A program made the translations under genes and the position numbers. A model generated the notes under the pieces. The model was not told the origin of the DNA. It was given only the letters and a program-made list of their open reading frames with translations, and made no database searches. Positions 2,489-61,830 of a stretch of 64,000 nt of DNA are shown here, piece by piece. Numbering within the stretch: position 1 is the first letter of the stretch; every line of letters begins with the position of its first letter. Location of the stretch: contig BDDD01005035.1 in assembly GCA_001972305.1 (NCBI GenBank), positions 1 through 64,000 of the forward strand. The letters run 5' to 3'. The stretch is from Cephalotus follicularis (lineage: Eukaryota > Streptophyta > Magnoliopsida > Oxalidales > Cephalotaceae).

Positions 2489-4699
2489 AGATATAGTGAC
2501 CCGACAAGCCATTACACGGGTTGTCATATTATATCTTATCCTGTATGAAACAATCTTATTCCTCGTATACATGATGTGTGCTAATTTGTTATGGCAATAT
2601 CACTTGTGTTTTATCACTTAATTGAAGTAGTTTATTATTTACCTGCTTACACTTGTCATGCCCTGACATAAGGTTGGATGCCTAACATGGAGGCTGTGAG
2701 ATAGGTTACCTTATTCCTTATGTCAAATTAGTTCAAAGTCATAGGTTCACTTTGTGGGCATTAGTGAACCAGACAGACTTGCGCGTATGTTGCCTGCTCA
2801 TGGAATTGGAGGATGGATTCTCTCACTACCATCTGTGTTGGACACTAAGGCAAATACGGGGTGTGCGCTGGGAGTGTGTACACTGAACTGGACCCGCGTA
2901 GGAGACACTATTTGGTTAGTCGCTTTTCTCGTGATAGTAGTGACTCTTACTTGTTACGGTCGTGTATAAGTGATGATCATTGAGCGATTTCTCAAACTCG
3001 TCTGATCCTTATACCTGAGCGACTGCTCTATATTGTATGGAGACGGTTATGCTTTGATCTCCACCTTACCCAGTCCTTACGCAGGGCTGGCAATCGGGTG
3101 GTATTTGGGTATGATCGAATCTATATGAATATAAGTGAGTGCGCAATATGGGATTGTCACACCTGAGCGAAGGTGATCAGCTCTATTATGATCTAATTAT
3201 ACTTTGGAGTTATGAAATCCTTGGCCAAGGTTGAGGTGGATGGGAAATTAGATTTCCGGAGAGTTTACGAAAGGTCCTAGTAATGATCGGATATTTTAGC
3301 CATTGAGGCATTATCTAGGGTTGACACATATCCTTACCCTAGACCTCAATCGGGGCCAAGCATGACAAGGGATTATAGTACACGTGAACCGACGACTTGA
3401 AAAATCTATGGTTCTTGAGGTGTGTAATAAATTATTGGAAAATTAATTAGATTAATTTTTCCATCTGGATAATATTAGATATTATTCCGATAGCATTTAA
3501 ATTGGTCAAGGACTATTTAGAATGGCTAAACCGAACCTTAGGGGTATTTCGGTATTTTATGAACACCTGTGGTTTTAACCAAGATTTTATAGGGTCCCTG
3601 TCTAATAATGATTAGATCTTTTATATGTTGGACATATTAAGTCTTGGTGTCAAATATCGGTTATGTGGATTTTGTATTTTGTGGAAACACATTTGTTTGA
3701 TCTTACTTAATCAATATTCGAAGGGTACTTCATATCACTAAAGGAGTTAGACTCAAATTACCTCACCTGCCAGGAAAAGCGTCGACGCCTTCTGGGAAAG
3801 GCGTCTAGCGTTATTGTGTTTTTAGCGTCAACGCCTTTGGGAAGTGTCAACGCTTAACACTTGTAAAGACGCCGATGTCTTTTAGAAAGCATCGACGTTT
3901 TTAGTGCCACATTACATAAGCATTGATGTCTTTTGGAAAGCATCGACGTCTTTGAGCAGGACGTGCAACCTATGCACGAACTCACTTCGTGGGCATGTTT
4001 TCTCTCTCATCTCCAGCAGTTATCTCCCGTTCTTGCATGTTATGGGAATGTGGGGATCATGGCCACAGACTCCCTAGGAGTGAGGACCATGATCCTAAGT
4101 GAATGGGAGAGTGGGAGAGAGAAGAAGGAGGCTAGTGATAAGAAAAATCTGTAGAACTTTTTAAAAAGAATGAGTTGAGTTTTTGCTGGGCAAGAGTAGT
4201 TCGGATTTCTCTCTGCAGATATTGTTCCCTTTACTGTTATACACCAAGCAAGTTCTTGTCTAGGGTGGATTGATTTTGGCTAAGTCTTGTCAATGTCAAT
4301 TTACTCTTCTCATGCTTAAAGAGAGAGTGAGAGAACTTTGCTTTTGATCTTGCTGGTTGGAGTAGTTTATGTACCAGGGATTTTGGAAGCAATGATTTTG
4401 GTGTCTTCCCAAGCGTGTAGAAGCAAAGCAAGAAGGAGCCTTCACCCGCTAGTATAATATCCTTGTCTGCTTCTCTTATTGCCATGCTTGTGTGTGTCAC
4501 CATTGCATGCAATGGTGACATCTTTTCAATTAAGTGTTGATGTGGTGGTCCATGTGACCTGTGGTCATGCCATAAAAGGACTGTTTTTACCGTTGTTGGG
4601 TGTTCTTCCGCTGCCATGATTGCTTGTTTGAGTTTTGTTCTACACCCTACATGCCTTAGTCCTTTTATGGCATAGGAATTGGTTAATCCGATTCCATTA
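2485..4699 (+). repeat. 3' LTR of copia A (about 2215 bp)
   Basis: The LTR starts TGTTAG after the polypurine tract. Its end is inferred from the inverted copy at 18101-29661, whose ends are set by the TSD CTAAG: the copy starts TGATGGAAATGG, which matches the reverse complement of the sequence ending at 4699 (CCATTA, so the canonical CA end has decayed to TA). The interior shares a conserved block (about 3000-3400, around GTCACACCTGAGC) with 4735-5140, with the B LTR (8540-8900) and, inverted, with the J LTR (34100-34450). A palindrome cluster lies at 3777-3955. Reading frames here, such as 126 codons at 4237-4617 on the minus strand, look incidental. Confidence 0.82.
3777..3955. repeat. GTCGAC-type palindrome cluster in LTR A
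   Basis: Several spaced copies of a degenerate palindrome are visible: AAAGCGTCGACGCCTTC (3777), GCGTCAACGCCTTT, AAAGACGCCGATGTCTTTT, AAAGCATCGACGTTTTT and AAAGCATCGACGTCTTTG. The inverted solo LTR carries the matching cluster at 18849-18985. The motif therefore belongs to this LTR family and is not a separate insertion here. Confidence 0.85.
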
Positions 4700-4704
4700 G
4701 TATA

Positions 4705-6200
4705 GGCTCTACGAGTCTAGCTAGTTCTCGGTGGACTTGTCTGATCCTTAGACCTGAGCCGCTACTATACATTGCATAGAGACTGTCTGACTTTGATTTC
4801 TACCCTACCCAGTTCTTTTACGGGGCTGGCAAACAGGTAGCTTTTGGGTCTTGCAGGATTTATGTGAATGTAAGTGAGTTCGTAACATGGGATCGTCACA
4901 CCTGATGTCAGGGTTCTATAGTATCTGTGTACATTATGGACTTTGAAATTCCTGGCCAGGTTATGACGAGCTAGAACCTAGGGCTTTCGGAAAGGCTTGT
5001 TTATTGTTATGATGGTATATATACAGATTTATAGATACTGGCATATCTAGGGTTGACACGTATCCTTACCCTAGGTCCTGATCGGAGCCGAGGATGGCGA
5101 GGGATTATAGTACATGATAACTGTTGTCAAGATAAAGTATCGGATGTATCAGAAACGAACTTAATTGTGGAAATTAATCATGAGATCAATTTACAGATCT
5201 GGAATAAGATAGTCATAGGTTCATGGTCTTAAAAGTAGTCAAGGACTATTTATGGTTAGTTTACTTAAGAGCAAGGCGTCTTAGTAACATACCATCGTTA
5301 CCAATTTAATTTCGGACTGACCAGTTGACGCAACATAGTAATATGATTATGGTGTTAAATAATAATTGGATTATTATTTTATCTCTTATCTTTCAATCTC
5401 TCTTATCACTGATTACATGCAAACATCTCTCATCTCATTGGTTGGTTGCATGAAGACATAAGATGTTTCTTTCCTTTTAGGATGGGAAGGCAACGCGTCT
5501 TCATACTTTGATAATGCGTAAGTCATGCAACGCCAAAATGAAGACAACATGTCTTCTTCACTAGGCTGGCCGTTTGTTGTGGTGCCAAGAAAGGAATAAA
5601 ATCCTTTAGCCCGTTTCAACAGCCTTGTGGCATTTTTGAAATGGATAAGCCATTTGTTATGGCGCCATGGATGGTAAATTAGATTTCTATTCAAGGAATG
5701 AAATATGGTTAACTAATTTCCATTATGGCTAGCTTTATGGTGATCCATGATGTGTGGATCATGACTCTTGTTGCTGGAAAGCATAAGAGGAGAGAATGTG
5801 TCTTTGCAAAGAAGTAGTGACACTAGTGTGTGTAACCTGGAAGTTGCAAACACATAGAGAGAGAGCATTGGTCTGGTTTTTTGTGTTCTTAGAGAACAAT
5901 AGAATAAATAGGAGAAACAAATACCATTGATCCTAAACACCACTACTTGATTTCTATAGGTGGTGTACTGCTTTCATTGAGAATTACATTCCCTATATTG
6001 ATCCTAGATTAGGCTTAGAAATATAGGACTTTGATTTGTTTGTTATTCTGCTGTTGTCTATTCCTAAGTTAAAGCTTGATGTCTCAGAACGGATTCTTGA
6101 AGGAAGGTTCGTAGCTCGGTATAAAATATATCCTTCTATGTATAAATGTTTTGTTTGATTGGGTTGTTGATAAGTGATCCAAGGATGTTTATGATTGTTT
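4705..6200 (+). repeat. older A-like copia LTR remnant
   Basis: 4735-5140 aligns by eye with 3000-3400 of LTR A in the same order and orientation: GTCTGATCCTTAGACCTGAGC, the TTTGATTTC and CCCAG-TTC blocks, GGGCTGGCAA, GATCGTCACACCTGA, then TCTAGGGTTGACACGTATCC. It begins at a point equivalent to the middle of the LTR, so element A seems to have inserted into this older LTR. The right limit is uncertain; similarity fades after about 5300. 5140-6200 holds no convincing gene. Confidence 0.55.
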
Positions 6201-10541: not shown

Positions 10542-10544
10542 AAG

Positions 10545-17826: not shown

Positions 17827-18095
17827 ATGGAAGGTCAACGTGAAAGAAACACAATAGGAGGTAGAGGCGGTCCAACGATCGGACGGACCCGAGTTAATAG
17901 AATTGTGGAAAAGGGAAAGTAAGGCCCTAGAAGCAGAAAATGTTGCTTTGACTCAAGAAGAGCCTAGAGATTATTTAAGAGAGACGCATGGCATGACAGC
18001 CAAATAAATGCAAATTGACGGTACCCAACGTGGGGCTAAGTTTATTGAGTTATCAAGGATAACATTTCATATGGTTAGCATGGAAGCAAGGTAGG
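17827..18095 (+). pseudogene. gypsy E gag, N-terminal stump
   Basis: ATG at 17827 opens 31 codons of a basic, Gly- and Arg-rich N terminus (MEGQRERNTIGGRGG) ending in TAA at 17920. This resembles the basic gag start of gypsy elements G1 and G2 in the same window. The rest, up to the inserted solo LTR at 18101, has no open frame. Its position directly after a PBS supports gag; sequence similarity alone would not. Confidence 0.55.
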
Positions 18096-18848
18096 CTAAG
18101 TGATGGAAATGGATAAACCGAATCCGGTGCAAAAAACGGACTTAGGCATATAGGGTGTAGAACAAAACAAAATTATATAAAATGGCAGCGGAAGAACACC
18201 CAATCAAAATAAAAAACAATCCATAAGGCATGTCCACAGACCACATGGATCACCACATCATTAATAGAATTGAATTGGTATCACCATAGCATACAATGGT
18301 GACACACAGGCATGGTAAGAAGAGAAGGACCAAGAGATATACCAGCGGGTGAAGGCTCCTTCTTTCTTTGCCGCTACATGCTTGAGTAGATTCCCTCTTT
18401 AATCTTCTCCAAGTCTATGGAACAACAAGCAATCCAACCAACAATAACCAAGAACAAAGTGTATAAACTCTATCTCTCTCACCATGCTTAGCAAAGGTAA
18501 ATTGATATTGACCAATGAAGTCAATAATCAATCCACCCTAGATAAGCTCTTGCTTGGTGCATCTCAGATGAAAGGAACACACTTTGCAGAGAGAAAATCG
18601 AAGTCACATTGCCTAGCAAAAAACTCAAAACTCATTCTTCTCATTTTCTGCAGAAAATGCTTATTACTAGCCCACTTCTTCTCCCTCCCACTCTCCCATT
18701 CACTTAGGATCATGGTCCTCACTCCTAGGGAGTCTGTGGCCATGATCCCCATGTTCCCATAACATGCAACAATGGGAGATGGTTGCTGGAGATGAGAGAG
18801 AAAACGTGCCCACGAAGTGAGCTCGTGCACAGGTTGCACGTTCTGCTC

Positions 18849-18985
18849 AAAGACGTCGACGCCTTCCAAAGGACATCGACGCTCATGCAATGTGGCACTA
18901 AAAACATCGACGCTTTCTAAAAGACATCGACATCTTAAAAAACGTTAAGCATCGACGCCTATCTAAAATATGTCGACGCTTTGTC
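18849..18985. repeat. GTCGAC-type cluster in the inverted LTR A
   Basis: AAAGACGTCGACGCCTTCC, GGACATCGACGCTC, AAACATCGACGCTTTC, AAGACATCGACATCTT, AAGCATCGACGCCTA and ATGTCGACGCTTTG follow one another. The order mirrors the cluster at 3777-3955. Confidence 0.85.
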
Positions 18986-19504
18986 TGGCCAGTGAAGCAA
19001 TAAGAATCTAACTCTTTTAGTGATCTCAAGTACCCTTCGAATATTGGTTAAGTAAGATCAAACATATGTGTTTCCACAAAATGAAAAATCCACATAACCG
19101 ATATTTGACACCAAGACGTAATATGTCCAACATATTAAAGAACTAATCATTATAAGGCAGAGACCCTATAAAATCTTGGTTAAAACAAGAGGTGTTCATA
19201 AAATACCGAAATACCCCCAGGGTCCGGTTTAGCCATTCTAAATGGTCCTTGACAAATTTAAATGCTATCAGAATAATATCTAATATTATCCATATGGAAA
19301 AATCAATCTAATTAATTTTCCCATACACCTCATAAACCCTAGATTTTCTAAGTCGTCAGTTCACGTGTACTATAATCCCTTGTCATGCTTGGCCCCGATT
19401 GAGGTCTAGGGTAAGGATATGTGTCAACCCTAGATAATACCTCAGTGGCTAAAATATCTGATCATTACTAGGACCTTTGGTAAACTCTCTGGTTACAACC
19501 CTTC

Positions 19505-19730: not shown

Positions 19731-20260
19731 TGAAATAAAGACTCTTGCAATATACAAGAGGGGGGGTGAATTGAATATTTATGTAAATATCGGGAATTTA
19801 AAAACTTTAAAACTAAAGAGTGAAGGGAAAGAAAAACTTCACCGAATTTAGAGTGGTTTGGCTAACTCTTGCCTGCGTCCACTTTTCCCAAGGCAGCTCC
19901 TTGAGTTTCCACTATCTCAAATTGATTATGGCACCAATTCGTTACACCTTTCAATTTCGTGATTGACCTCAATCACAAGACCTTGACCTCAAGACCTTAG
20001 AGGATTCTCCTCTTTTACAAGTAATTTGTGAAAGTGTTTACAAGATAACCTCTCAAATAGGTTGATATGACTTATACAGATCACAATATGAAACACTCAG
20101 AAAAAACTCAAAAGATAGAGCTTAGAAGCCTTTTAGAACATTAAAGAGCACTTTGATCTTTTACACACTAGAGTGCTTGAATTTGATATCTTTCTTGATG
20201 TTGTGTAATTATTGTTGAATCTTGCTTATTTGTTCTTTATTCTTCTGATACTTGAGTCTT

Positions 20261-20269
20261 CCTTATATA
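20261..20269 (-). promoter_or_regulatory. TATA box in D 3' LTR
   Basis: The minus strand reads GCCTATATAAGGAAG, a strong TATA box. It is identical in the 5' LTR. The palindrome array begins about 90 bp upstream of it. Confidence 0.75.
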
Positions 20270-20360
20270 GGCATAAAATATTTGTAGCCGTTGCATAATT
20301 CATGGAAGCTTTTGATTTTAAAATGTATTAGTGCAACTTTGAATTTGTCTCTGCTGACAT

Positions 20361-20905
20361 AAAGACGTCGATGTCTTTATAAAGGCGTCGATGTCTTTGA
20401 TAGTTGCAAGCCGTTGCAAGTGCGTTTACTAGCCGTTCCATGTTTTCCGGGTCAATCCATTTAAAAAGACGTCGATGTCTTTTTAAAAGCGTCGATGTCT
20501 TTTCTGGGAATATGTCCAGGCATTTGAAGCTATGAGCATCACATCGACTTCTTCTGTAGGGGTAGATGTCTTTTCCAGGAATTGCAGATAGGTCTAGAAA
20601 GGCGTCGATGTCTTTGGAAAGGGATCGACTTCTTTTCATGGATGTCGATGTCTGCACGAGAAAGGATCGATGTGATCAATCAATTTTGACCTGTAACTTT
20701 TGCACCTTAAGACGTCGATGTCTTCCTGATGGGGATCGATGTCTTTTGTACGGACGTCGATGTCTTTGCTTGTAGGGATTGATGTCTTCATTAAAATTTG
20801 ATCTGTAACTTTTGGCGCTAAGGACGTCGATGTTTTCTTGAAAGGGATCGATGTCTTTTGTACGGACGTCGATGTCTTTGCTTGAAGGTCGATGTCTTTG
20901 CCCTG
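20361..20905. repeat. palindrome array in D 3' LTR
   Basis: About 18 copies of a 15- to 18-bp degenerate palindrome occupy 545 bp, such as AAGACGTCGATGTCTTT, AAGGCGTCGATGTCTTT and GGGATCGATGTCTTTTG. Full forms (GACGTCGATGTC) alternate with half forms (GGATCGATGTC). The right arm ATGTCTTT is best conserved. The same array is in the 5' LTR (28440-28985). Frames across it give spurious peptides rich in KDIDVF and RHRR. Confidence 0.92.
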
Positions 20906-21015
20906 CAGATGATTTTTGCCTTTTGTGAAATTTTCTAATATCTTGCACATCAAGTAAACTTGTCAAATGCAAATATGTTATCATCAAAACTAGGATTAAG
21001 ACTAAATCATCAACA

Positions 21016-37630: not shown

Positions 37631-37857
37631 GTATATATATAATTTGGGATCAAGTAATGAATGACATGAATGAATACATTCATAATGCAAAACATAAATA
37701 ACATAGGATATACATGAACATATATATATATCCACCAAGCTTGTATCATCCGATAGCTACATTAACACAAGTACGAGCCTATCCCCGAAGGGGCCAGATA
37801 AAACAATCAGGTCACTAAGGACCCATCATGCCACATCAAGGTTGCTGACACCCAGGC

Positions 37858-38060
37858 TCAACATCTGGTTACTTACACAGCAGGGCTTAGTAACCCAAGG
37901 GAGTCCCTAGCTACTTGCCCAACAGAGCTCAGTAACCATTGCATGGAAAACCCTAGCTACTTACTCAACAGAGTTTAGTGGCTACCGTATAAGGAACTTC
38001 CAACTACTTTCCCAACAGGGCTCAGTAGTAGAATTCCTAGCTACTTACCCAACAGAGCTT
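37858..38060 (-). repeat. tandem repeats in LTR H
   Basis: About four to five units of 45-60 bp with the core CTAGCTACTTACCCAACAGAGC and then TTAGTAACC. Some units recur in degraded form near 38160-38190. These differ from the GTCGAC clusters. Confidence 0.75.
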
Positions 38061-39460: not shown

Positions 39461-39791
39461 ACGTTTAAGAGCCCAGAACACTGTCTCTTTCATTCCATCC
39501 ACAAAACAGGGGTACTCAACCCTTATATACATGCAATCAAGCATGGGATTCACCGAGGAATCAACATGCATACATAGTCCACACCAATAGGTGTTCAAAC
39601 CATCAACCAAACATTCAGTTCAACTCCAAACAAGCATGCAATTCATACATTTTATTCATGACAACACATTAACTTTGAACTCAAATATTGTGATGACCCG
39701 AATTTATAGTAAAGATATTAATTATGGAAAATGATTGCTATTGTGTAGTTGGCAAATATTTCAAGGGACCCGTAGTATGACCCTACACTCG

Positions 39792-40160
39792 GGGATAAAG
39801 AGTCGACAAAACTGTCTTAAGCGCCGACAGTTCCACTTAAAGCGCCGACGCTTGGGTAGTAACGATCGACGCTTAGACCCCTTCTATCTGCGCTTTAAAC
39901 CAGTGAAAGGGTAAATTGGACAAAGCCCTCACACCGTCGACGCTTAGGGATAAAGAGTCGACGCTTTGGGCAACGGTCGATGCTCTAAATGTAAAAGTCA
40001 ACGCTTCGAGATCAAGTATTGAAGTTGACTTGGAGGAGACTTAAAGCGGCAACGCTTTGTATGAAAGCGTCAGCACTTTAGTCAAGATATAAGTTGAAGA
40101 ACTCAGTATAAGGCCGTGACCATTGACGCTTAGGTGTAAAGAGTCGACGCTTTGCCATGT
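39792..40160. repeat. GTCGACGCTT cluster in LTR Y
   Basis: AAAGAGTCGACAAAAC, AAAGCGCCGACGCTTGG, CGATCGACGCTTAG, CCGTCGACGCTTAGGG, AAAGAGTCGACGCTTTGG, ACGGTCGATGCTC, AAAGTCAACGCTTCG, AAAGCGGCAACGCTTTG and AAAGAGTCGACGCTTTGCC. This is the GCGTCGACGC variant of the motif, on the plus strand. Confidence 0.88.
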
Positions 40161-40376
40161 GTCAGGTGCATAATTCTAGCTTTTTATCCCGTTTCGAAGG
40201 ATTTAAATGGATTGTAGGACACGTGTCAAGCAAGCGATGGAAGACTTATGATATTTTCCTAGAATAGGGCAGGTGGCATCAGCTGAATTCATTGAATTCA
40301 ATCACATGGAGGCAAGCTCACATGGGTGAGGTCATGGATGACACCATGCAAGCTTGGCCTCCAAGTTTGCCTCTCC

Positions 40377-42280: not shown

Positions 42281-44210
42281 TGTAACACCTCGCGCCCGCA
42301 GGGCGGACATGTGGCGTTACGCTCAATCCAATACACATACAATGGTCGGGACTAGCAATATAAAAATGCGGAAGAACTTAAAACTTTCCAATACATATCG
42401 GATGCGGAAGAAACAATACACTGATCCATACATACGATACAATTCCTTTACAATACAACTCTTTTCAATACATTAACAATCTTTCAATACAAAAATCTCA
42501 ATACAATACACTCCAATTTCCACTACAAAGTCTCACAACCAGCTCCTCGGTGTCCAAGCAGTCATACGATCAACGGTCCTCAGTCCTTCTGTCCAATACT
42601 GCCTGCTGCCCTACCTATGCAGCACACAAAGGTACAACACAGCCCTACCCCGAAGGATGGGGTTAGCCACACTGGCTAAGTATAAACGCCATGCAGCATG
42701 TATAAATGTACAATGTGCAGTATCGGTGACAATTTATACAATAACAATGTGCGGTGTACAACATCGATGCATGACATGGCAAATGTACATGTACAATTGG
42801 CGATCATACTATCCGTATGACAGTGGCCCAAAATAGAGCATACATGTAGGATCTATAACAATAAATCAATGGCAGACACTCAATGGTGGTGTATGAAACA
42901 CCCAATCAATCAATCAATATCCTATAGAGCATGCGACCGGGTCAATACAATGTCAATCGGTTAACGGTGATCAATCCCACGGAAGGTAGTCCTACAAAAA
43001 GGGTGGGATATCTATCTACGGTTTCCAGATTGATCAGGTCTGGAACTCATAGATCTTCCAGCCTATGGCTGGGTCAATACGATCTCGATGAGCTACAACC
43101 GAGGGAGCTACTGATACCCTTAGGGAGCTACAGCCTCAAGGGAGCATCAATCGATAATCAATCGGTACCGCTCATCAGCGGGTCAATACAATACAATAAG
43201 TGAAACGATCGGCGGAATAGGCGGACAGAGTCAACGGCCTAACATGCCGACACGAATCATAAGGTCGCTCTATAGGATCCATACAATACAATCAATCAAT
43301 CAATCGAGTCAATACAATATTGGGTAAAGTCAATAAGTGGTGGTGTCTAATGGAGAAATGGGAACGTGAGTCCATCGTACCGACTTAGGCTCGCAACAAC
43401 ACTCACGACTCAAGCAATCGATCGATGTATCAATACAGCGTCGAAGCAAAGCAACAAGTGGTGGTGCCTAATGGAGGGATGGGAACGTGCATCCATTTTA
43501 CCGACTTAGACTCGCAGCAACACTCATGACTCAAGCAATCAATCGGTCAGTGCAATCATTAAAACTATTTTCAAACACTTGAACACCTCAAGTGAGGCTC
43601 CGGTCAAGTGGCAATATGAAAAGAAGTAGGAAACTAGCTTTAAAACAGTTAAAACTCCTTTCAGTACATTAGACGTCGATGTCTTTAATGAAAGACGTCG
43701 ACTCCTCTTTAAAATGGAGGAAAGACGTCGATGTCTTTAGAAAGACGTCGATGTCTTTAGAAATACGTCGATGTCTTTCCTTGTTCGTGTAGAGAATTGG
43801 CCAAAGACGTCGACGTCTTTTGAGAAAGGCATCGACCCTTTTCAATAAAAACAGCCTGAGAATGCGTATCAATGTTCAGCATCGACGTCTTTCCAGGGGA
43901 GAGACATCTCGAGGCAAAGACGTCGACGTCTTTAGAAAGACGTCGTTGTATTTGCTGCAGAATCAAGGATATTGCACTCGTATAAGAAAGACATCGACGC
44001 CTTTGGGCTAAGGGTCGACGTCCTTCCGGGTAGGGTCGATTTTTCTGGCAGAAAATGGGGCCAATCTCAAGCCAAAATCCAATTAAAAGACATTCTTTGA
44101 AAACCAAAGTTTACAGTCAATCATTTGAGGTTAGTAAGACTAGTTACAACCTTCCAAATTCGATTTCAATCATTCAATTTAACAATTAGGTCAAGGGTTT
44201 GCTATAAACC
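42281..44210 (-). repeat. 3' LTR of G1, truncated at its start
   Basis: It matches 56074-57081 plus 59546 to about 60445 of the 5' LTR. It contains the TTAGCC/GGCTAA hairpin (42663-42679), an imperfect 116-bp tandem duplication (43333-43550) and the palindrome array 43672-44035. At 44210 it joins directly to integrase coding sequence. Confidence 0.87.
43672..44035. repeat. palindrome array in G1 3' LTR, with perfect 18-bp copies
   Basis: AAAGACGTCGACGTCTTT occurs exactly at 43803-43820 and 43916-43933. Degenerate copies include TTAGACGTCGATGTCTTT, AAAGACGTCGATGTCTTT (43722 and 43740) and AAATACGTCGATGTCTTT. The array is repeated in the 5' LTR at 59932-60285. Confidence 0.95.
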
Positions 44211-47200
44211 TTAAACCACAACCCAAATACCATCATGTCTGTCATGAGTCAGAGGCAACCCAGACACGAAATCCATGGTAATATGCTCCCATTTCCACTC
44301 AGGGATGAGCAAAGGCTGAAGCAAGCCTGTCGGTCTTTGGTGCTCTGCCTTAACTTGCTGACAAGTGAGGCATCTCGATACAAACTCTGCGATTTCTCTC
44401 TTCATACCAACCCACCAATAGCTAAGTTTTAGGTCACGAAACATCTTCATACTCCCTGGATGGACAGAGAGACGAGATTTATGAGCTTGGGAAAGAAGCT
44501 CTTCCTTCAACTCGCTATCAGCTAGAATTCAAATTCCGTTCCTGTATCTCAATAATCCATCTGTAGAGAGAGAGAAATCGGGTTTCAATCCTTCATCAAT
44601 AGTAGAAGTCACTTTCTGTAATTCAATATCCATTATCTGTGCATCTCTAATCTGATCAAGCAATACAGGTTGCACCTGAATATGGGAAAGAGTCATACAA
44701 GATAGCTTGTGACTCAATGCATCTGCAACGACATTTGCTTTTCCAGGATGGTATTCAATGTCACAATCATAATCATTAAGAAGCTCAAACCACCTTCTCT
44801 GTCTCATGTTCAATTCCTTCTGTGAAAAGAGATATCTCAAACTCTTATGATCAGTGAAAACTGTAAACTTGGTCCCATAAAGGTAGTGGCGCCATTTTCC
44901 AAGAGCAAAGATAATGGTTGCCAGCTCCAAGTCAGGCACTGGGTAGTTTTCCTCATGTGGTTTGATCTTCCTCGATGCATAAGCAATCCCTTTTCCGTAT
45001 TGCATAAGAACACAACCAAGCCCCTTTCCAGAAGCATCGGTGTATACAACAAAGTCTTATTTCCCGTCTGGCAAGGCTAGGACAGGAGCGGAAATCAATT
45101 TGTCTTTCAACTCTTCAAAACTTCTTTCACAATCACTATCCCATACAAAGGCAATGTTCTTCTGTGTCAATCTGGTCAACGGTGTTGCAATACGGGAAAA
45201 TCCCTCAACAAACCGACGATAATACCCTGCTAAACCCAACAAGCTGCGAACTTTGGAACCATTCGTCGGTCGTTTCCAATCTTTCACTGCCTCTACTTTC
45301 GATGGATCCACTGATAAACCGTCACCAGAAACAATATGCCCTAGAAAAGCAACCTCCGATAGCCAAAACGCGCACTTATCAAATTTGGCATACAGTCAGT
45401 GATCCCTCAAAGTTTGCAATACAATGTAGAGGTGTTGGGCATGCTCCTCATCGGTCCTAGAATAGACCAAGAGGTCATCAATGAACACTACAATGAACTG
45501 ATCCAAATACTGCATGAACACTCGGTTCATCAGGTACATGAAAGCCGCAGGAGCATTAGTCACACCAAAAGGCATAACTAAGAACTCATAATGGCCATAT
45601 CTCGATCTAAAAGCCGTCTTCGGAATATCCTCCGGTCTGACTTTCAACTGGTGGTAGCCCGATCTCAAGTCGAGCTTGGAAAACACTGTCGCTCCTCTAA
45701 GCTGATCAAACAGCTCATCAATGTGCGGTAGAGGGTACTTATTCTTCACTGTAACTTTATTGAGCTGTCGGTAGTCAAAACATATACGGAGCGATCCATC
45801 TTTCTTCTTGACAAAAAGAACCGGTGCTCCCCAGGGTGAAGCACTAGGTCTTATAAAACCTTTGTCAAGAAGATTCTGTAACTGTATCTTTAACTCTTTC
45901 AACTCTATTGGTTCCATTCGGTACGGTGCTCGAGAAATCAGTGCAGTTCCTGGTATCAAATCAATTACAAATTCTATCTCTCTGTCTAGCGGCAACAATG
46001 TCAAATCCCGAGGAAAAACATCTCTGAACTCGCAAACCACTGGAATGTCCTCCAGTTCTGGCCGCCATCTGTCTGTATCGAGCACATGTGCCAGAAACCC
46101 CTGGCATCCCTGTCGTAACAATTTGTCCACATGTAAAGTCGAAATCATCGGAACAAACAAAGGCTCTAAGGTGCCAAGAAACCGAAAAGGTGGTCGTCCC
46201 GGAGTACTGAAAACCATAACTTTCCGATGACAATCCACCTGAGCAAAGCTAGCAGACAACCAATCCATGCCAAGAATCACATCTAGGAAATCCATCGGTA
46301 AAACAATAAGATCGGCTAACAAGCAACGATCATCAATCTCAACAATACAATCTCTACACACTCGATTGGTGGTCGCTGACTCACCGAGAGGTGTGGATAC
46401 CTCCATAAAGAATGGAAGGTACTCAGGACTCAAACCAACATGGGAGACAAAATGCAATGCAATGAATGAATGAGATGAACCCGGATCAATAAGAACCCGC
46501 GCTGGAAGCTGAAAGAGTTGAATGGTACCTCCAATCACAACATCTGACCCTGCTGCAGCACTCGGTTCCATAGCAAACACTCTAGCCTGAACTGTCAGAG
46601 CAGAACCCATAGGATACTTCCCCCTGGACTGCGAAGTCCCCCGGGAAGGAGACGGTACACTAGCTATCAGTCCTGGTAGAGGCGGTGCCCGCTGTGTCTG
46701 ATCAAATCCTTTAGGACGAGAACTCCGACGACAATCTCTAGTAATGTGGTCGGGACCACCACAAACCAAGCAATGACCCAAGAACCATCTACAATTCTCA
46801 GAAGTATGGTTGGTCTTCTGACAATGCACACAAGGAACCGTAGCACTCTGATTACCACTCTCAGAAAATCTGGAGGGTGTACCCTGACTAGGTGCTGAAG
46901 ATCGGCCTCCTCGACGTGCGTTCCTCGATCTGCCTCTCCTCCTGGAATGGGACAGATTCCCGCTTTCCTAATTACTACCCTGAGAACCAGGTGAGGGGCT
47001 ACTATCAGTCTTCTGTGATTTAGCACTGCCACTGTCACTACCACTCTACCAAGAAGAAGGAGTAGGCCTGGTGCGGGCTGCATTCCTCATCAGTTTAGCC
47101 TTAGCTGCAATATCCTCAAGCTGCATAGCTTGGGAAGAAATATCTGATATGGAGGTCAACCCCAAGGGACTCAATTGCCTCCTCAAATCCAATCGCAGTC

Positions 47201-47679: not shown

Positions 47680-49356
47680 TGTAACGCCCAGTATTTTTTT
47701 CCTGAATATAATATTTCGATTTATGATGTAGTCGTAAACTTGAATTAATGAGAATGTCGAGATTTTGAACTCAAAAGATGCTTACAAACCCTAGTTATGG
47801 TTTTGGAAATGGAATGTGTATGTCAAAACTTAAAACGACGCTGTTTTGGGGTAAAGACATCGACGTCTTTCTAAAGACATCGACGCCTATGGGAACCGAG
47901 GTACACGTGAATGCATGGGCATGCACGTCGACATTGTGTGAAGGCATCCACACCTTCTTACGAAAAGGGAAAAGACATCGACGTATAAGGAAAGACGTCG
48001 ACGCCTTTGTAAAGAACATCTGTCACGTTTTTTTTCACTGATAGAGTAACATGCAATGGGATCTTTGGGGGCTTTACCAGACGCCCTAACATGTGCATTG
48101 TGACATGTTGATCATGCTGGTGTGTTGCCAGGCATGCTCAAAACGTGCCCCTCACATGGAACATGCAAAGGAATATACCATCCTCACATGCAACCTGTAA
48201 AAGAAAGAAGGGAAGAAAATAAAAGAAAAGTGCAGAATCTGGAAAGAGGGAGAGAGCACAAGAGTGCCCATTAAATGTAAGGAGAAGGATGTTGGGGGGG
48301 AAGCCACCTACCTAAGAACGACCCTCCCCACTTCTCTCTCTCATTTTAAAACACCAAAGGAAAGAAAGGAGAGAAAACAGTGAGTGTGAGAGCCACCATT
48401 GTTGAGCTTGGATTGAGCAAGAGATTGGAGCTCGTGGGTAGCAGTTGCTGAGAGGATCTTGGAGCTGTTGGTGGCCAGAACTTGGGAACTCAAAGAGGTG
48501 GACTTTCTAGCTCCTAACTTGGAACAATAAGGAAGGGGAAAGTGATAGATTTATACATGCATTTTTGGTTTTAAGTTAGTGAATAACATGATGAATGGCA
48601 TGTTAATGGTTGAATGGTGATTCTGGACTTGTTGTGGTGTTAAAGTGATATACGGAGTTAATTATGCATGTACGATTTCATGAATATGTGAATTGGTTGT
48701 GTAAGGGATAGATGTGATAATGGATTGGTTTGTCTGGTTCCTTTTTGGGAATATAATTACTGCTTGTGTTGATATAACTTATGAGTTATACTTGTACTGT
48801 GAGCATGCAGATATTTTTATATGTACATACGGAGGTATACTTACTGTGAAAATTACATGTCATGGCTCATCATAATGCATCCATTCATGATACTCATTAT
48901 CATATGACTCGAACTGTATTTATGGGTTTATTCACTTAGCCGAGTGAGGACAAAGGCTAACCCCTACTGTAACAGATTGACGGAGTGGATATGATTTGGA
49001 GCATGCATGGAGACTTAAAGAGAAGACTTTGTTATCTCCCTTATTTATGTATTTGGATTATTGAACATTGATCATGTTATTCGGATTTTGTAACAGAGGA
49101 TATTTTGTTATCTCGTACTGTATTATTTCACGCTCCGTTTTGGCGCGATCGACAGTTATGTTGGGTTTATTTATAAACTTGTTGGGCATCACATAGTATG
49201 GGATGCGTGATGCATGTTGAAATTCAGCCTATTTGTGTTATTGCTTCCGCTACTGAAGGTTTTTATTCATTCGTTTTATCGCATGAGCTGAATTATCTTG
49301 TGTTGATTGCCTTACCGCTTTATGTGTTGTCTTGTTGTGGAAACGGGGGCGTGACA
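47680..49356 (+). repeat. 5' LTR of G2 (1677 bp)
   Basis: It starts TGTAACGCCC and ends GGGGGCGTGACA. It aligns along its length with 54045-55703. Palindrome cluster at 47850-48005; hairpin TTAGCC/GGCTAA at 48936-48960. The TATA box seen in G2-prime is degraded here. Confidence 0.94.
47850..48005. repeat. palindrome cluster in G2 5' LTR
   Basis: AAAGACATCGACGTCTTTC, AAAGACATCGACGCCTATG, CACGTCGACATTGTG, GGCATCCACACCTTC, AAGACATCGACGTATAAGG and AAAGACGTCGACGCCTTTG. It corresponds to 54215-54370 in the 3' LTR. Confidence 0.9.
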
Positions 49357-56070: not shown

Positions 56071-57086
56071 TACTGTAACACCCCGCGCCCGCAAGGCGGA
56101 CACGTGGCGTTACGCTCAATCCAATACACAATACAATGGTCGGGACTAGCAATATAAAAATGCGGAAAAACTTAAAAGTTTCCAATACATATCGGATACG
56201 GAAGAAACAATACACTGATCCATACATACGATACAATTCCTTTACAATACAAGTCTTTTCAATACATTAACAATCTTTCAATACAATAATCTCAATACAA
56301 TACACTCCAATTCCCACTACAAAGTCTCACAACCAGCTCCTCGGTGTCCAAGCAGTCATACGATCAACGGTCCTCAGTCCTTCTGTCCACTGCTGCCTGC
56401 TGCCCTACCTATGCAGCACACAAAGGTACAACACAGCCCCACCCCAAAGGATGGGATTAGCCACACTGGCTAAGCAGAAACCCCATGCAGCATGTATGCA
56501 TTGACAATGTGCAGTATCGGTGACAGTTTATACAATAACAATGTGCGGTGTACAATATCGATGCATGACATGGCAAATGTACATGTACAATTTGCGATCA
56601 TACTATCCGTATGACAGTGGCCCAAAATAGAGCATACGGATAGGATCTATAACAATCAATCAATGGCAGACACTCAATGGTGGTGTATGAAACACCCAAT
56701 CAATCAATCAAAATCCTATAGAGCATGCGACCGGGTCAATACAATGTCAATCGGTTAGCGGTGATCAATCCCACGGAAGGTAGTCCTTCAAAAAGGGTGG
56801 GAGATCTATCTACGGTTTCCAGATTGATCAGGTCTGGAACTCATAGATCTTCCAGCCTATGGCTGGGTCAATACGGTCTCGATGAGCTACAACCGAGGGA
56901 GCTACTGATACCGTTAGGGAGCTACGGCCTCAAGGGAGCATCAATCGACAATCAATCGGTACCGCTCGTCAGCGGGTCAATACAATACAATAAGTGAAAC
57001 GATCGGCGGAATAGGCGGACAGAGTCAACGGCCTAACATGCCGACACGAATCATAAGGTCGCTCATATAGGATCACACTACAATAC

Positions 57087-57336
57087 TGTTGACTTTTAGT
57101 CTCAACTCTAGGTTTTAATGGATTACAAATTTGCATTTAACTTTGCTACTTTATGTGCAAGAAAAGATATAAGCAAAACAAAGAAGTACAAAAACAGAGC
57201 AAAGCGTCGACTCTGTTGATCAAAGCGTCTGCTCTTTGAGGTACAAAGCGTCTGCTCTTTGTGCAAAGCGTCTACCGTCTCAGGACAGAGAACAAAATGG
57301 CAATTACAAAATGGCTAAAGCGTCGACTCTTAAGGT
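57087..57336 (+). repeat. 5' LTR of K, truncated
   Basis: It matches 58949 to about 59196 of the 3' LTR and then diverges at CTTAAGGTAA. Motif copies AAAGCGTCGACTCTG, AAAGCGTCTGCTCTTTG (twice) and AAAGCGTCGACTCTTAAGG are present. Confidence 0.87.
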
Positions 57337-57847
57337 AATGTTAACTAAAACCCAAGGCCCACGTTTAGTTATTTGTGGAATGTTCCCAAGTGAGGGGAGT
57401 TTATGTTACCTACTATCTTTCTAACCAAAACACAACTCGAATGTTATTGGAGAAATTTCCAACCTATACTTTCATATTTTGTTTTCTATCAACGTTCGAA
57501 ACACATACTTTCAAATTTGAGATCGAACTACAAGAAAAAGAACATCTATACGTTCACATCTACAAGGTTCAGTGAATTTAGAAGTAAGAACCGAACATAT
57601 ATATCCAAGTACATCAAAGATCGGCAACCACTTCTTTATCTAGGCAACCTCTTCACAACCTTGAACAACGTATTTCTTACCGAGAATTTTTGTTCAAGAC
57701 TGTAACAAGGTCGTCAGGTTTCGCAGCTGCCTCATCGGAATTCGCAGCTGCCAGTACACTGGCAACCCCTAGAGTTAAACTTAGAAGTCGAGTTTCGCGT
57801 CTGCAGTTGTACAACCTCAGCTGACGGTCTGAATTTCTCAGCTGCGA
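57337..57847. repeat. unassigned segment with CAGCTG palindromes
   Basis: This half-kilobase does not match the K 3' LTR. Its right part (57715-57847) has several copies of a different CG-containing palindrome: TTCGCAGCTGCC twice, CTCAGCTGACG and CTCAGCTGCGA, with CGCGTCTGCAG. It looks like LTR sequence of another Sirevirus-like family joined to K, ending at the gap. The open frame at 57403-57705 has no family features. Confidence 0.55.
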
Positions 57848-57872
57848 NNNNNNNNNNNNNNNNNNNNNNNNN
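57848..57872. other. assembly gap (25 N)
   Basis: A run of 25 N separates the CAGCTG segment from gag of K; the true distance is unknown. Confidence 0.98.
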
Positions 57873-57877
57873 TGTGT

Positions 57878-58408
57878 TTGAAAAACAAGACTTTTAAGAA
57901 AAATGCTATTTATATGTCTAATGAAATTGATAATTTGAAGAAAGAGAATAGCAAGTATGTGAATGAAATTGAATCTCTAAAGGATAAAAATAGCTTCTAT
58001 ATGAATGAGATTGACATTTTAAATGTTTCTTCAAAATTGTCAAATGATTTTATGGAAGAAAATGAAAAATTGAAAATTGAAATTGATGCCTTGAAGAAAT
58101 CCTTCTCTATTTTTTCAAATAGTAGTGCTAAATTGGATAATCTATTAGGCTTACAAAAATGTGTGTTTGACAAAGCCGGTCTTGGCTTTGAAGAAATGAA
58201 AAATGTCAAACATTTTAAGAATTTCTTTGTTAAGAAAGTAGAGCCTCAAATGTGTTGCAATTATTGTGGTAGATTAGGACATATTTCTACCTCTTGCTTT
58301 TATAGAAATAATATTTGTTGTGGTAAAACTAAGAAAATTTGGGTTCCTAAAGGAACTCTTGTGACTAACCTCAAAGGACCCAAGTTCAAATGGGTACCAA
58401 AAACGTGA
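57878..58408 (+). pseudogene. Sirevirus K gag, C-terminal half
   Basis: The 176-codon open frame begins within gag at the gap edge. It has heptad-like, Lys- and Glu-rich coiled coil (EIDNLKKENSKYVNEIESLK), then KLDNLLGLQKCVFDKAG, matching the same stretch in D (LLGLQRCVFNKAR, about 26400). A CCHC knuckle CNYCGRLGHISTSC follows, then a short tail (KKIWVPKG, GPKFKWVPKT) and a stop. In full Sireviruses this tail leads to protease; here the coding sequence ends and the 3' untranslated part follows, so pol has been deleted. Confidence 0.88.
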
Positions 58409-58462
58409 ACCTTGTTTTGTAGGTGTACTTGAAGTCAAGATCAATATGTTCAAGTACATAAC

Positions 58463-58947
58463 CTGGGGAGAAAGCCCTAGTTGAGGGGGAGGTATTGATA
58501 TTATGTTGATATTCTTGCTGCTTCAACAATTGTTTTTTATTTCCTTTATTCTCTTTTTATATCACTTTAAAATGAAACAATTGGTATTTATTCTTGTTAA
58601 AATTATCTTTTTGATGCTAACAAAAAGGGGGAGAATGCTTTATGATTAAGAAAAAAATTGATAGCATTTGTTTAGGGGGAGCTTGATATGAAAAAAATGC
58701 CATAAATGAAGAATGTGGTAAGGAGGAGTTTAAGGGTAAAGATAAGCTTTTTTGCATATATCTCCTTTTTTTTGAAACATGAATTTTAGAAGTCATATCA
58801 AGGGAGAGCTTATTTAGAATTTTTAAGTTGGTATCTAAAGAAACCCTTGTCTTGGTATCAAAAGAAAAATTCTTTTTATCTTTAATTGGTATAAATTTTT
58901 TTTTTCCTTAATATAGCAAAATTTTGTAATCATCAAAAAGGGGGAGA
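58463..58947 (+). other. multiple polypurine tracts of K
   Basis: Purine tracts with a GGGGGA or GGGGAGA core lie at about 58463, 58481, 58622 and 58673, and at 58934-58947 directly before the 3' LTR. The spacing region between them is T-rich and non-coding. Confidence 0.8.
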
Positions 58948-58948
58948 T

Positions 58949-59540
58949 TGTTGACTTTTAGTCTCAATCCTAAGTTTTAATGATTACAAATTTGCATTTA
59001 ACTTTGCTACTTTATGTGCAAGAAAAGATATAAGCAAAACAAAGAAGTACAAAAACAGAGCAAAGCGTCGACTCTTTGATCAAAGCATCTGCTCTTTGAG
59101 GTACAAAGCGTCTGCTCTTTGTGCAAAGCGTCTACCGTCTCAGATAGAGAACAAAATGGAAATTACAAAATGGCTAAAGCGTCGACTCTTAAGGTAAAGC
59201 GTCGACTCTTTAAGTCTGGCAGTCGACTCCAACATGTTGACGTCTGCGCTTTGAGCTGGAGATTCAAATTGAGACCCCCAACGGTCACATGACCGTCGAC
59301 GCTTAAGGCTACTCCGTCGACGCTTTGGACTCCTGGAACAATAGAAACTCAAGGGGCTCTTGAGAAAGTGGACGTAGGCACGGATTTGCCGAACCACTAT
59401 AAATTCGTTTGCACTTTCTATCCCTTAACTCTTTAATTGTTATTATTTGATTGTGCTTGTGTGAGTGTTTATGTTCATTGCTTAAATTGTATTTTCCGCA
59501 TACAAAGTTATTAGTTAAAGGTTGCCATACTTTCCTTTCA
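58949..59540 (+). repeat. 3' LTR of K (592 bp)
   Basis: It starts TGTTGACTTTTAG and ends TTTCCTTTCA before the TSD. Motif copies at 59062-59325 (AAAGCGTCGACTCTTTG, GACCGTCGACGCTTAAGG, CCGTCGACGCTTTGG) are followed within about 75 bp by a TATA box (TATAAA, 59398-59403). Confidence 0.9.
59398..59403 (+). promoter_or_regulatory. TATA box in K 3' LTR
   Basis: CCACTATAAATTCG lies just after the palindrome cluster, the same order as in D and Y. Confidence 0.68.
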
Positions 59541-59931
59541 AATACAATACAATCAATCAATCAATCGAGTCAATACAATATTGGGTAAAGTCAGTAAGTG
59601 GTGGTGTCTAATGGAGAAATGGGAACGTGCATCCATCGTACCGACTTAGGCTCGCAACAACACTCGCGACTCAAGCAATCGATCGATGTATAAATACAAT
59701 GTCGAAGCAAAGCAATAAGTGGTGGTGCCTAATGGAGGGATGGGAACGTGCATCCATTTTACCGACTTAGACTCGCAGCAACACTCATGACTCAAGCAAT
59801 CAATCGGTCAGTGCAATCATTAAAACTATTTTCAAACACTTGAACACCTCAAGTGAGGCTCCGGTCAAGTGGAAATATGAAAAGAAGTACGAAACTAGCT
59901 TTAAAACAGTTAAAACTCCTTTCAGTACATT

Positions 59932-60285
59932 AGGCGTCGATGTCTTTAATGAAAGACGTTGACTCCTCTTTAAAATGGAGGAAAGACGTCGATGTCTTTA
60001 GAAAGATGTCGATATCTTTCCCTGTTCAAGTAGAGAATTTGCCAAAGACGTCGACGTCTTTTGAGAAAGGCGTCGACGTTTTTCAATAAAAACAGCCTGA
60101 GAATGCGCATCGATGTTTGACATTGACGTCTTTCCAGGGGAGAGACTTCTCGAGGCAAAGACGTCGACGTCTTTAGAAAGACATCGATGTCTTTGCTACA
60201 GAATCAAGGATATTGCACTCGTATGAGAGAGACATTGACACCTTTGGGCTAAGGGTCGACGTCTTTCTGGGCAAGGTCGATTTTT
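59932..60285. repeat. palindrome array in G1 5' LTR
   Basis: It corresponds to 43672-44035. The perfect AAAGACGTCGACGTCTTT is at 60044-60061, and again around 60157-60174. Several other copies differ from the 3' LTR at CG sites (ACGTCG to ACGTTG or ATGTCG). Confidence 0.93.
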
Positions 60286-61687
60286 CTGGCAGAAAATGGG
60301 GCCAATCTCAAGCAAAAATCCAATTAAAAGACATTATTTGAAAACCAAAGTTTACAATCAATCATTTGAGGTTAGTAAGACTAGTTACAACCTTCCAAAT
60401 TCGATTTCAATCATTCAATTTAACAATTAGGTGAAGGGTTTGCTATAAACCCTAAAAACCTCAATTGAATCACTCAATCACTCAATTCAATCATGCAATT
60501 CATTCAATCAATCAATAAAACAGTAGGTAATTCAGTAAAGAAGTCCTACCTATCACTGAAGCTTCAAAAGTTGAGCTAACGATCGATCAATCGGCTGAAA
60601 ACGCCCAATAATCCGCTACTTTCTTGTTCAAAGGTGAGCCACCACTTGTAATCACTGTCCTTGTTGATGGGGATGCAATTCCGGCTGCAAGGGAGGAAGA
60701 TGGAGGCTCCAGCTAGAGAGAGAGAGGGAGAAGGATAGAGAGAGAAGAGGAAATGTGAATAATGAGAGAAAGAGAGAAAGAATTGACTTAAATAATCGAT
60801 TCGATCAACTCTCCGAAACTCGACCCAAAATCCTGACTATACAGGCATATAACCAATACAATATCAATAGGTATAAGAATACCTCAATACAATACGGTTC
60901 AATACGGTCCAATATGGTACAATACGGTACGATGTATGCATGAACAGTACCAAAGGGAATTCGGTCGTCACACTTGTGAAGTTATTGGGTAATAATGTTA
61001 GATTTTAAATCTAAGTTAAGAGTAAATGATATGAAATGGATGTTTAAATGATTAAACGATTTGACGGTCAAAGGTTACACCCATGTAACGCACCGATCTT
61101 CGGAGCTCGCTTTGAGCTTAAAGTGGACTCGGGTCGGGGGCGCTACAAATATGTACATATAATTCCCCTACCTATGGTTTGAAGTTAGAAACCTTGTAAG
61201 TTTACCTCTTTGTGTTCCAAGAATTGATCACAGTAGCTTCAAGGTTGTCCCGTTGCTGTAAGCTTCCAGCTCCAAGTTCCCCAAGCTCCATTGTTTCAAC
61301 AATGGTGGTTCTCCCTTTCTCTCACTTATTGGCTCCTTTCATTTCTTTTCCCTCCTTAGGCGTTTCTATCAGAGTATGTGGGGAAGGGAGGAGAATTTAT
61401 GTTAGGTGACTCTCTCTTCCCTTCAGCCATAAAGAACACTCCTGTGTCCTCTCCCTCTTCCCCATTCAATTTCTGCATTCTAACTTTGTTTCCTTCTCCT
61501 CTTCTTTTGCAGGTTGCATGCATGCTAACACTTGTTACATTCTCCATCCCTCCTCAGTCATGCAGGTCAGGAGGCTATCATGCATGCCCAACACGTCCCA
61601 CTTCGTGTCCCAAGGTGCCTACAACAAGTCCATAATTGTCTCCCTTTGCACATTATTCTGTCAGTTCATAACGTGACTGATATTCTT

Positions 61688-61830
61688 TTCAAAGACGTCG
61701 ATGTATTTTCCTCTTTCGTACAAGGGCATTGATGCCTTCTTCTGCATCGACGTGCATGTGCATGCATTTACATGCGCCCTTTGTTCCCATAGGCGTCGAC
61801 GTCTTTACAAAGACATTGACGCGTTTAGCC
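61688..61830. repeat. palindrome cluster near the start of H
   Basis: AAAGACGTCGATGTATTTT, GGGCATTGATGCCTTC, TGCATCGACGTGCATG, TAGGCGTCGACGTCTTT and AAAGACATTGACGCGTTT. It has the same relative position as 36972-37118 in G2-prime. Confidence 0.85.

What the first reader, a model, noticed from the sequence alone, without database searches (positions are those of the whole stretch)
3777..61830. One palindromic motif family shared by LTRs of unrelated retrotransposon lineages
Clusters of a palindrome centred on GTCGAC (ideal form AAAGACGTCGACGTCTTT; variant AAAGCGTCGACGCTTT) occur in the LTRs of copia A, Sireviruses D and K, gypsy G1 and G2, and solo LTRs H, G2-prime and Y, with weaker versions in E and B. 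They belong to the LTRs: both LTRs of D, G1, G2 and K carry them at matching positions. A given 11-mer such as ACGTCGATGTC is expected about 0.015 times per strand in 64 kb of random sequence, yet there are dozens. Palindromic LTR repeats are described for Sireviruses; sharing one motif with gypsy and Tork-type LTRs is not something I know of. Possible explanations are a common host factor (GACGTC is the bZIP C-box core, but the GCGTCGACGC form lacks ACGT), a shared small-RNA target, or exchange between LTRs.
Basis: partly seen in the sequence, partly recalled or inferred. Interest (0 to 1): 0.88.

Follow-up and report, generated by a model that had tools for sequence, protein, structure and literature searches.

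The report
Shared palindrome in unrelated plant LTRs
Several families of plant retrotransposons in this stretch carry clusters of the same 18-base palindrome in their control regions and share almost nothing else there, as if different genomic parasites use one switch.

Summary
In detail: 70 sites within 4 mismatches of AAAGACGTCGACGTCTTT, against 0-2 per shuffle. At 10 bits or more, 82 of 89 sites lie in LTRs defined without the motif; the internal stretches tested hold none. Carriers form four LTR groups: copia A/A2; Sirevirus D with K (16-bp variant); gypsy G2/G2'/H/Y; gypsy G1. With sites masked, only a 216-bp A2-G1 patch without motif still matches between groups. Seven 10-mers occur in 4 or more of 8 LTR groups, all from the motif; Markov sets give 0.

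Clusters are CpG-rich and sites are often spaced 20, 31, 41 or 51 bp; in D they precede a TATA box. Core bases are kept across sites although they change after insertion. This favours a protein-bound U3 element over an RNA hairpin, without proving it.

Closest known: Sirevirus palindromic repeated motifs (PMC2829016), CGG-CCG core, reported absent from other copia elements. Here the core is TCGA, and copia A and gypsy LTRs carry it too. Factor, host and genome-wide extent are unknown (genome search did not complete); copying versus convergence is unresolved.

The parts
2486..4708 (+). LTR of copia A (3' LTR; start set by PPT at 2478, end approximate); motif cluster 3775-3953 with 18-mer and 16-mer types
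   Evidence: copia RT upstream; PPT; sites; homology to A2
18093..19492 (-). LTR part of A2, relative of A (about 80%); motif cluster 18849-18983
19731..21015 (-). 3' LTR of Sirevirus D; 13 sites of at least 10 bits
   Evidence: LTR pair 95.7%; sites
27810..29094 (-). 5' LTR of Sirevirus D; 14 sites of at least 10 bits, upstream of TATATAAGG at LTR position 747
35097..37288 (-). G2' solo LTR (TSD TGCGT, read by eye); cluster at 36972-37119, second cluster at 35840-36222 in a 532-bp stretch absent from G2
37294..39688 (-). H, LTR-like sequence related to G2/G2' (boundaries not established); sites 38916-39447
39689..40300 (+). H2, sequence starting TGTGATGACCC like a gypsy LTR (by its start only); six 16-mer-type sites (39839-40153); end not established
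42281..44215 (-). 3' LTR of gypsy G1, its U3 side cut by a deletion; 11 sites of at least 10 bits, 43669-44004
56074..60972 (-). 5' LTR of gypsy G1 (starts TGTGACGACC at 60972), interrupted by K; 10 sites of at least 10 bits, 59930-60245
57087..59541 (+). K, Sirevirus-type insertion with TSD AATAC (by eye); both LTR copies (57087-57338, 58949-59541) carry 16-mer-type sites
47680..49356 (+). 5' LTR of gypsy G2 (element TSD GCATC, by eye); 4 sites of at least 10 bits
54045..55703 (+). 3' LTR of gypsy G2; 5 sites of at least 10 bits
61163..62027 (-). Y, TGTAACGCC-type LTR part (about 63% to G2 LTR); 4 sites of at least 10 bits
19489..19704 (-). Patch in the A2 LTR that matches the G1 LTR (60381-60597, 78%); A, B and C share a different, ancestral segment there; no motif inside

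Best explanation
The palindromes are arrays of binding sites for one sequence-specific, dimeric nuclear protein, most likely a host transcription factor, in the U3 part of the LTR, where they raise or license transcription of the element. Several LTR families acquired the site separately, by copying from another LTR or by chance seeding, and multiplied it by tandem duplication at about two helical turns. Active source copies keep it under selection; inserted copies lose it by CpG transitions. Shown here: sharing, LTR confinement, little other similarity, CpG-rich clusters, spacing, base-specific constraint. Inferred: protein binding, dimer, host origin, activating role.
For: The motif accounts for the long words shared by the LTR groups: 7 10-mers in at least 4 of 8 groups, all motif, 0 in each of 10 Markov sets; at 9 and 8 letters some non-motif words appear too. 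With sites masked, blastn at E 1e-3 finds one between-group match, the A2-G1 patch. Adjacent spacings: 41 of 76 intervals are 19-22 bp (both LTRs of D, G1 and G2 counted), with others at 30-32, 41-42 and 50-51; the 12 intervals of 23-60 bp, one LTR per element, are in phase with a 10.2-10.5 bp repeat (one-sided p 0.002-0.005). Base-specific constraint: across 60 oriented sites positions 6, 9, 10 and 13 show 8 transitions while 7 and 12 show 40; between the two LTRs of D, G1 and G2 the same classes show 11 and 3 (hand count; Fisher p 3e-5), so the core is mutable but kept. Clusters have CpG o/e 1.24-1.83 against 0.29-0.82 in the rest of the LTR in 7 of the 9 LTR pieces where one search found sites. 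In D they lie upstream of a TATA box. No excess complementarity beyond independent columns, 433 against 431.9 of 540. Precedent: heat-responsive sites arose independently in several COPIA LTR families (PMC5059998, passages).
Against: No binding, expression or methylation data. No plant factor with this site was identified (no motif library was at hand). The site is longer than usual for one dimer and two arm spacings exist (18 and 16 bp). Sites are not independent (tandem copies; D gives 13 of 60). With the period left free and the 20-bp class removed, the best period was 9.5, the edge of the range tested, so helical phasing is only suggestive. Of the 9 LTR pieces, G2' shows no CpG contrast (0.80 against 0.91, its span covering two distant clusters) and E has a single site (1.27 against 0.85). 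Spacer-shuffle z is 2.7-3.0 for A against G2, G2' and Y and 2.4 for D-G1, so some similarity beyond the sites is not excluded. TATA position is clear only for D. The matrix that picked the sites was built from this window.
Confidence: 0.5

Rival explanations
1. Shared small-RNA or RNA-structure element: the palindromes form hairpins in the U3 part of the transcript, feeding or decoying small RNAs, and sharing reflects that.
For: All six cluster segments folded do so better than dinucleotide shuffles, z -2.9 to -6.4. Sirevirus palindromes have been linked to small RNAs in maize (recalled; the paper is not held).
Against: Palindromes fold by construction. Columns show no excess complementarity. 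The commonest sense form has A7 opposite C12 (30 of 60 sites), which breaks the pair in sense RNA, though in antisense RNA it becomes a G-U pair; the antisense case was not tested by shuffling.
Confidence: 0.15
2. Exchange alone: a minisatellite-like 20-bp unit was copied between LTRs by template switching or conversion and has no function.
For: A2 holds a 216-bp G1-like patch where A, B and C share the ancestral segment, so gypsy-to-copia LTR transfer happened. One 20-bp unit (43761) of the G1 3' LTR is missing from the 5' LTR. A few between-group pairs have spacer z of 2.4-3.0.
Against: No motif-bearing tract longer than the sites is detected between groups by masked blastn, 17 of 25 between-group pairs have z below 2, and base-specific constraint with decay after insertion argues for function.
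Confidence: 0.15
3. Target of an element-encoded anti-silencing protein, as VANC proteins of VANDAL transposons bind tandemly repeated short motifs; other families exploit the factor of one autonomous family.
For: Clustered tandem sites, like VANC targets (PMC5735166, passages); clusters stay CpG-rich in otherwise CpG-poor LTRs. D has frames after pol.
Against: The VANC passages seen concern VANDAL DNA transposons. In the 20 frames scanned against Pfam no DNA-binding accessory gene stood out; one frame after D pol has a below-cutoff PF20167 hit and one frame of K a below-cutoff leucine-zipper hit. No dedicated search for VANC relatives was made and one D frame (22930-23460) was not scanned.
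Confidence: 0.1
4. One family nested in the others, or a compositional artefact.
For: Nesting is real here: K in G1, G2 in G1, D in A2.
Against: Sites sit in register in both LTRs of D, G1 and G2; masked LTRs do not align between groups except the A2-G1 patch; shuffles give almost none.
Confidence: 0.02

Closest known systems
Sirevirus palindromic repeated motif (RM), Bousios et al. 2010, PMC2829016
   Same: Short palindromes, many copies, in the upper half of the LTR, upstream of TATA, forming CpG islands; Vitis RM CGGTCGACCG shares the GTCGAC centre and Tnd-1 ACAATCGATTGT the ATCGAT centre.
   Different: The core here is TCGA with AAAG/CTTT arms and no CGG-CCG; it also occurs in a non-Sirevirus copia (A), where the paper found RMs absent from classic copia elements, and in gypsy LTRs, which the paper's Ty1/copia comparison did not cover in the parts seen; no copies in the D internal region.
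Heat-responsive elements in Brassicaceae COPIA LTRs, PMC5059998
   Same: One host factor's site gained repeatedly in LTR families, partly by duplication (passages).
   Different: The passages concern COPIA families; the factor is known (HSF); the site is a different sequence (nTTCn type).
VANC target motifs of VANDAL transposons, PMC5735166
   Same: Short motif multiplied in tandem in non-coding parts of mobile elements (passages).
   Different: VANDAL transposons, motif YAGTATTAY in one orientation, element-encoded protein; none identified here.
5' CpG islands of Del LTRs, PMC4029996
   Same: CpG-rich, length-variable block in the 5' part of gypsy LTRs (passages).
   Different: The word palindrome does not occur in that text; eudicot Del LTRs there had no island.

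Membership tests
Sirevirus (elements D and K) | Several AGGGGGAG octamers near the 3' LTR | tested here: met
   D has 3 (21025, 21292, 21335, minus), K has 4 (58484, 58626, 58674, 58939) (criterion)
Sirevirus (element D) | CA/ATTGG junction next to the Met-tRNA PBS and poly-C signal near the LTR end | tested here: met
   CA-ATTGGTATCAGAG at 27809 and a run of 7 C before the LTR end (criterion seen in passages)
Sirevirus (element D) | TATA box near mid-LTR after the repeat cluster | tested here: met
   TATATAAGG at LTR position 747 of 1285; last site starts at 638 (criterion)
Sirevirus RM (Bousios 2010) | Palindrome in many LTR copies forming a CpG-rich block | tested here: met
   13-14 sites per D LTR; CpG o/e 1.34 against 0.42; no formal island caller was run
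Sirevirus RM (Bousios 2010) | CGG-CCG core | tested here: not met
   Core is [AG]TCGA[CT]; Tnd-1 is an exception in the paper too
Sirevirus RM (Bousios 2010) | Absent from non-Sirevirus elements | tested here: not met
   Same motif in copia A (PPT AAGTGGGAG, 41% RT identity to D) and in gypsy G1 and G2
bZIP C-box | ACGT core in every site | tested here: not met
   For example 20381 AAAGGCGTCGATGTCTTT has none; the 16-mer form has none
Gypsy superfamily (G1, G2) | PF00078-type RT and RNase H; integrase after RT | tested here: met
   RVP_2, RVT_1 and RT_RNaseH in both; Integrase_H2C2 (and rve below its cutoff) after RT in G2; G1 ends within integrase by eye
Tork lineage (copia A) | RT phylogeny | not tested
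   Only copia RT (PF07727) and 41% identity to D RT shown
Host transcription-factor site | Bound by a host protein and needed for LTR activity | not testable with these tools
   No binding or reporter data available

The most novel reading that the evidence does not exclude
In this plant one unidentified DNA-binding factor with a long palindromic site acts as a common regulator of LTR promoters across copia and gypsy retrotransposons: a shared regulatory code of unrelated genomic parasites, gained repeatedly and partly passed between LTRs, that keeps a small CpG-rich island in otherwise CpG-depleted LTRs.
Probability: 0.4. Interest if true: 0.78.

Novelty: new variant of a known kind. Interest (0 to 1): 0.62.

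Why it matters
Palindromic LTR repeats were reported as a Sirevirus feature absent from other copia elements. Finding one motif in copia and gypsy LTRs of the same genome that share little else suggests that unrelated retrotransposons converge on, or trade, one regulatory switch. That gives a direct handle, a fixed 18-base bait, on the factor that activates or shields LTRs, and makes the question of convergence versus LTR exchange testable by counting motif-bearing LTRs per lineage.

Tried and rejected
Literal search of 5.39 million open papers for 11 strings of the motif: 10 papers hold one of the first five strings (9 listed) and 10 hold one of the other six; by title and start of abstract none is about retrotransposons. 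Topic searches (20 of 51 listed) listed no paper whose title or abstract start reports one palindrome shared by copia and gypsy LTRs; most subscription journals are not held.

Viral contig scan with AAAGACRTCGAYGYCTTT: 13 loci, one place each, no second site within 4 mismatches and no TGGTATCAGAGC in any of the 13, so taken as chance single hits. Relatives of D pol and of G1 protease-RT in viral contigs: none confirmed.

Nested-fragment explanation: rejected. RNA covariation: no excess in the sense strand. bZIP C-box: rejected as a general rule. A strictly sense-oriented motif: rejected; the A7/C12 form is commonest in D (10 of 13), G2 (3 of 4) and the G2' clusters (8 of 11), but A2 has the opposite form in 4 of 5 sites. 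A G1 LTR continuous up to Y (62027): dropped, because a separate LTR start lies at 60972.

Errors of mine: one search paired some G1 sites wrongly and was replaced; still mis-registers one G2 pair (47940/54304), which I left out, with transversions, when counting transitions by hand (11 and 3) for the Fisher test (itself printed 15 and 5). The oriented profile of 60 sites includes 6 sites in H and 1 in E, whose LTR limits are uncertain.
Full report
WHAT IS THERE. The window is a stack of nested plant LTR retrotransposons. Self-comparison gives LTR pairs for D (19731-21015 and 27810-29094, 95.7%), G2 (47680-49356 and 54045-55703, 95.6%) and G1 (42281-44215 against 56074-57086 plus 59542-60456, 93-96%). 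Domains show copia RT for A and D and gypsy protease-RT for G1 and G2. A and D RT are 41% identical over 176 residues; G1 and G2 protease-RT are 54% identical over 444, so these two gypsy elements are related in coding sequence although their LTRs do not align. By eye, G2 has TSD GCATC, the solo LTR G2' has TGCGT, and K (57087-59541), inserted in the G1 LTR, has AATAC. D is inserted in A2, whose two flanks continue A, without an exact TSD. D and K are Sireviruses by the tested hallmarks. The host is a plant that was not identified; named plant relatives of D pol with full coverage match at about 60% in the best 120 of 7985 hits.

THE MOTIF IS REAL. There are 70 sites within 4 mismatches of AAAGACGTCGACGTCTTT against a mean of 0.4 in 20 shuffles, and 89 at 10 bits or more against 0.27 expected. 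Of those 89, 82 lie in LTR segments defined by LTR pairing or LTR homology alone, which cover 22,185 of 64,000 bases; the other 7 are in H (6) and E (1). Per LTR, counts at no more than 4 mismatches are A 3, A2 2, D 11, G2 4, G2' 10, H 5, G1 8 and Y 3; B, E, K, H2 and the region holding C have 0; internal stretches of D, G1 plus G2 and A plus B have 0; shuffles mean 0-0.07. The 16-base variant (no more than 3 mismatches) is the form in K (5 and 4 in the two LTR copies) and H2 (6), with some in A (3), A2 (3), H (4), and one each in E, G1 and G2; B, C, D and Y have none.

IT IS SHARED BY LTRS THAT SHARE LITTLE ELSE. With sites masked, blastn joins A with A2, B and C; D with K; G2 with G2', H and Y; and G1 with itself. 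Between these groups only one match remains, A2 with G1. Shuffling the spacers between sites tests for similarity beyond the sites. Of 25 between-group pairs, 17 have z below 2; four have z 2.4-3.0 (A with G2, G2' and Y; D with G1) and four involving H have 3.1-4.4, probably because weak copies in H were not held fixed. Of 11 within-group pairs, five have z above 6 (A-A2 25, G2-G2' 15, G2'insert-H 11, G2-Y 10, G2'-Y 6); the other six have 0.5-4.1. So a little extra similarity of A with the G2 group is not excluded. Without using the motif at all, 10-mers present in at least 4 of 8 LTR groups number 7, all parts of the motif; ten Markov sets give none. At 9 letters there are 18 against a Markov mean of 1.6, and at 8 letters 14 (in at least 5 groups) against 4.9, some of them not motif.

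ANATOMY. Oriented to element sense, the common form is AAAG[A/G]C[A/G]TCGA[C/T]G[T/C]CTTT (60 sites, one LTR per element). Neighbouring sites are most often 20-22 bp apart, that is, palindromes with 2-4 bases between them, then 30-32, 41-42 and 50-51. For the 12 intervals of 23-60 bp, a test at fixed periods of 10.2-10.5 gives p 0.002-0.005; a free search preferred 9.5, the edge of its range, and several intervals are homologous, so this is suggestive only. Clusters have CpG o/e of 1.24-1.83 against 0.29-0.82 in the rest of the LTR for A, A2, D, G2, G1, H and Y; G2' (0.80 against 0.91) does not show it over its long span and E has one site only (1.27 against 0.85). In D the cluster ends about 90 bases before TATATAAGG.

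SELECTION. Positions 6, 9, 10 and 13 (C, C, G, G of the CpGs) show 8 transitions in 60 sites, positions 7 and 12 show 40. Between the two LTRs of D, G1 and G2, where change is after insertion, the same classes show 11 and 3 transitions (hand count from the list, one mis-registered pair left out; Fisher p 3e-5). So the core does mutate once inserted but is kept in the lineages that spread. Caveats: tandem copies are not independent, the matrix was trained on this window, and 7 and 12 are often no longer CpG. Paired columns show no excess complementarity (433 against 431.9 of 540). The clusters do fold better than shuffles (z -2.9 to -6.4, six segments), as palindromes must.

HOW IT MAY HAVE SPREAD. 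B and C share the 5' part of the A LTR but not the motif, so within this copia group the motif was gained (or lost) separately. A2 carries a 216-bp patch that is 78% identical to the G1 LTR, exactly where A, B and C share another segment (A against B 69%, A against C 65%; A against A2 no match there). So a gypsy LTR segment has replaced a copia LTR segment at least once. The patch itself has no motif, so exchange is shown to be possible, not shown to be the route. Two arm spacings (18 and 16 bp), each found in a Sirevirus and in gypsy or gypsy-like LTRs (H2 by its start only), fit either repeated copying or one protein that tolerates both.

MECHANISM. The best guess is a dimeric host DNA-binding protein that recognises TCGA with outer AAAG/CTTT arms and acts on LTR transcription, with sites multiplied by tandem duplication. 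The factor is unnamed. A bZIP C-box does not fit sites without ACGT. Small-RNA, pure-exchange and anti-silencing readings stay open (see rivals).

WHAT IS KNOWN. Bousios et al. 2010 (PMC2829016; sections 6, 9 and 11 read in full, other passages seen) describe palindromic repeated motifs in Sirevirus LTRs, in the upper half, upstream of TATA, forming CpG islands, absent from classic copia elements, with a CGG-CCG core except Tnd-1. D fits in place and habit but not in core sequence, and the same motif lies in copia A and gypsy LTRs. Passages only were seen of PMC4029996, PMC4963935, PMC5059998, PMC5735166 and PMC12786077. A 2016 paper on maize Sirevirus palindromes is recalled; it is not held. 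By literal string the motif appears in no held paper on retrotransposons as judged by title and start of abstract.

LIMITS. One 64-kb window, one genome, no genome-wide count (genome search did not complete), no functional data. The verdict on sharing is strong for this window; the verdict on cause is not.

Noticed in passing
19489-19704 against 60381-60597: A 216-bp patch of G1-type gypsy LTR sequence (78%) replaces an ancestral segment in the copia A2 LTR: a case of LTR segment transfer between superfamilies.
   Followed up: partly
35727-36258: The G2' solo LTR has 532 bp absent from both G2 LTRs, with a second motif cluster, related to H.
   Followed up: partly
21619-23460, minus strand: D has open frames after pol; of the two scanned, one has a below-cutoff match to PF20167 (putative plant transposon protein). 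Whether this is an envelope-like gene is open.
   Followed up: no
23593-23772: Perfect tandem duplication of 90 bp inside the D pol frame, which stays open.
   Followed up: no
57087-59541: K is a short Sirevirus-type element inserted in the G1 LTR; its one frame of 110 aa or more has only a below-cutoff leucine-zipper match.
   Followed up: partly
9290-9438: The B LTR holds 52-bp tandem repeats with GCGTTGACGC, possibly a decayed relative of the motif; it does not pass our thresholds.
   Followed up: no
20465, 43691, 43875, 43987, 47853: All five central-CpG transitions between LTR pairs are G to A in element sense; five cases only.
   Followed up: no
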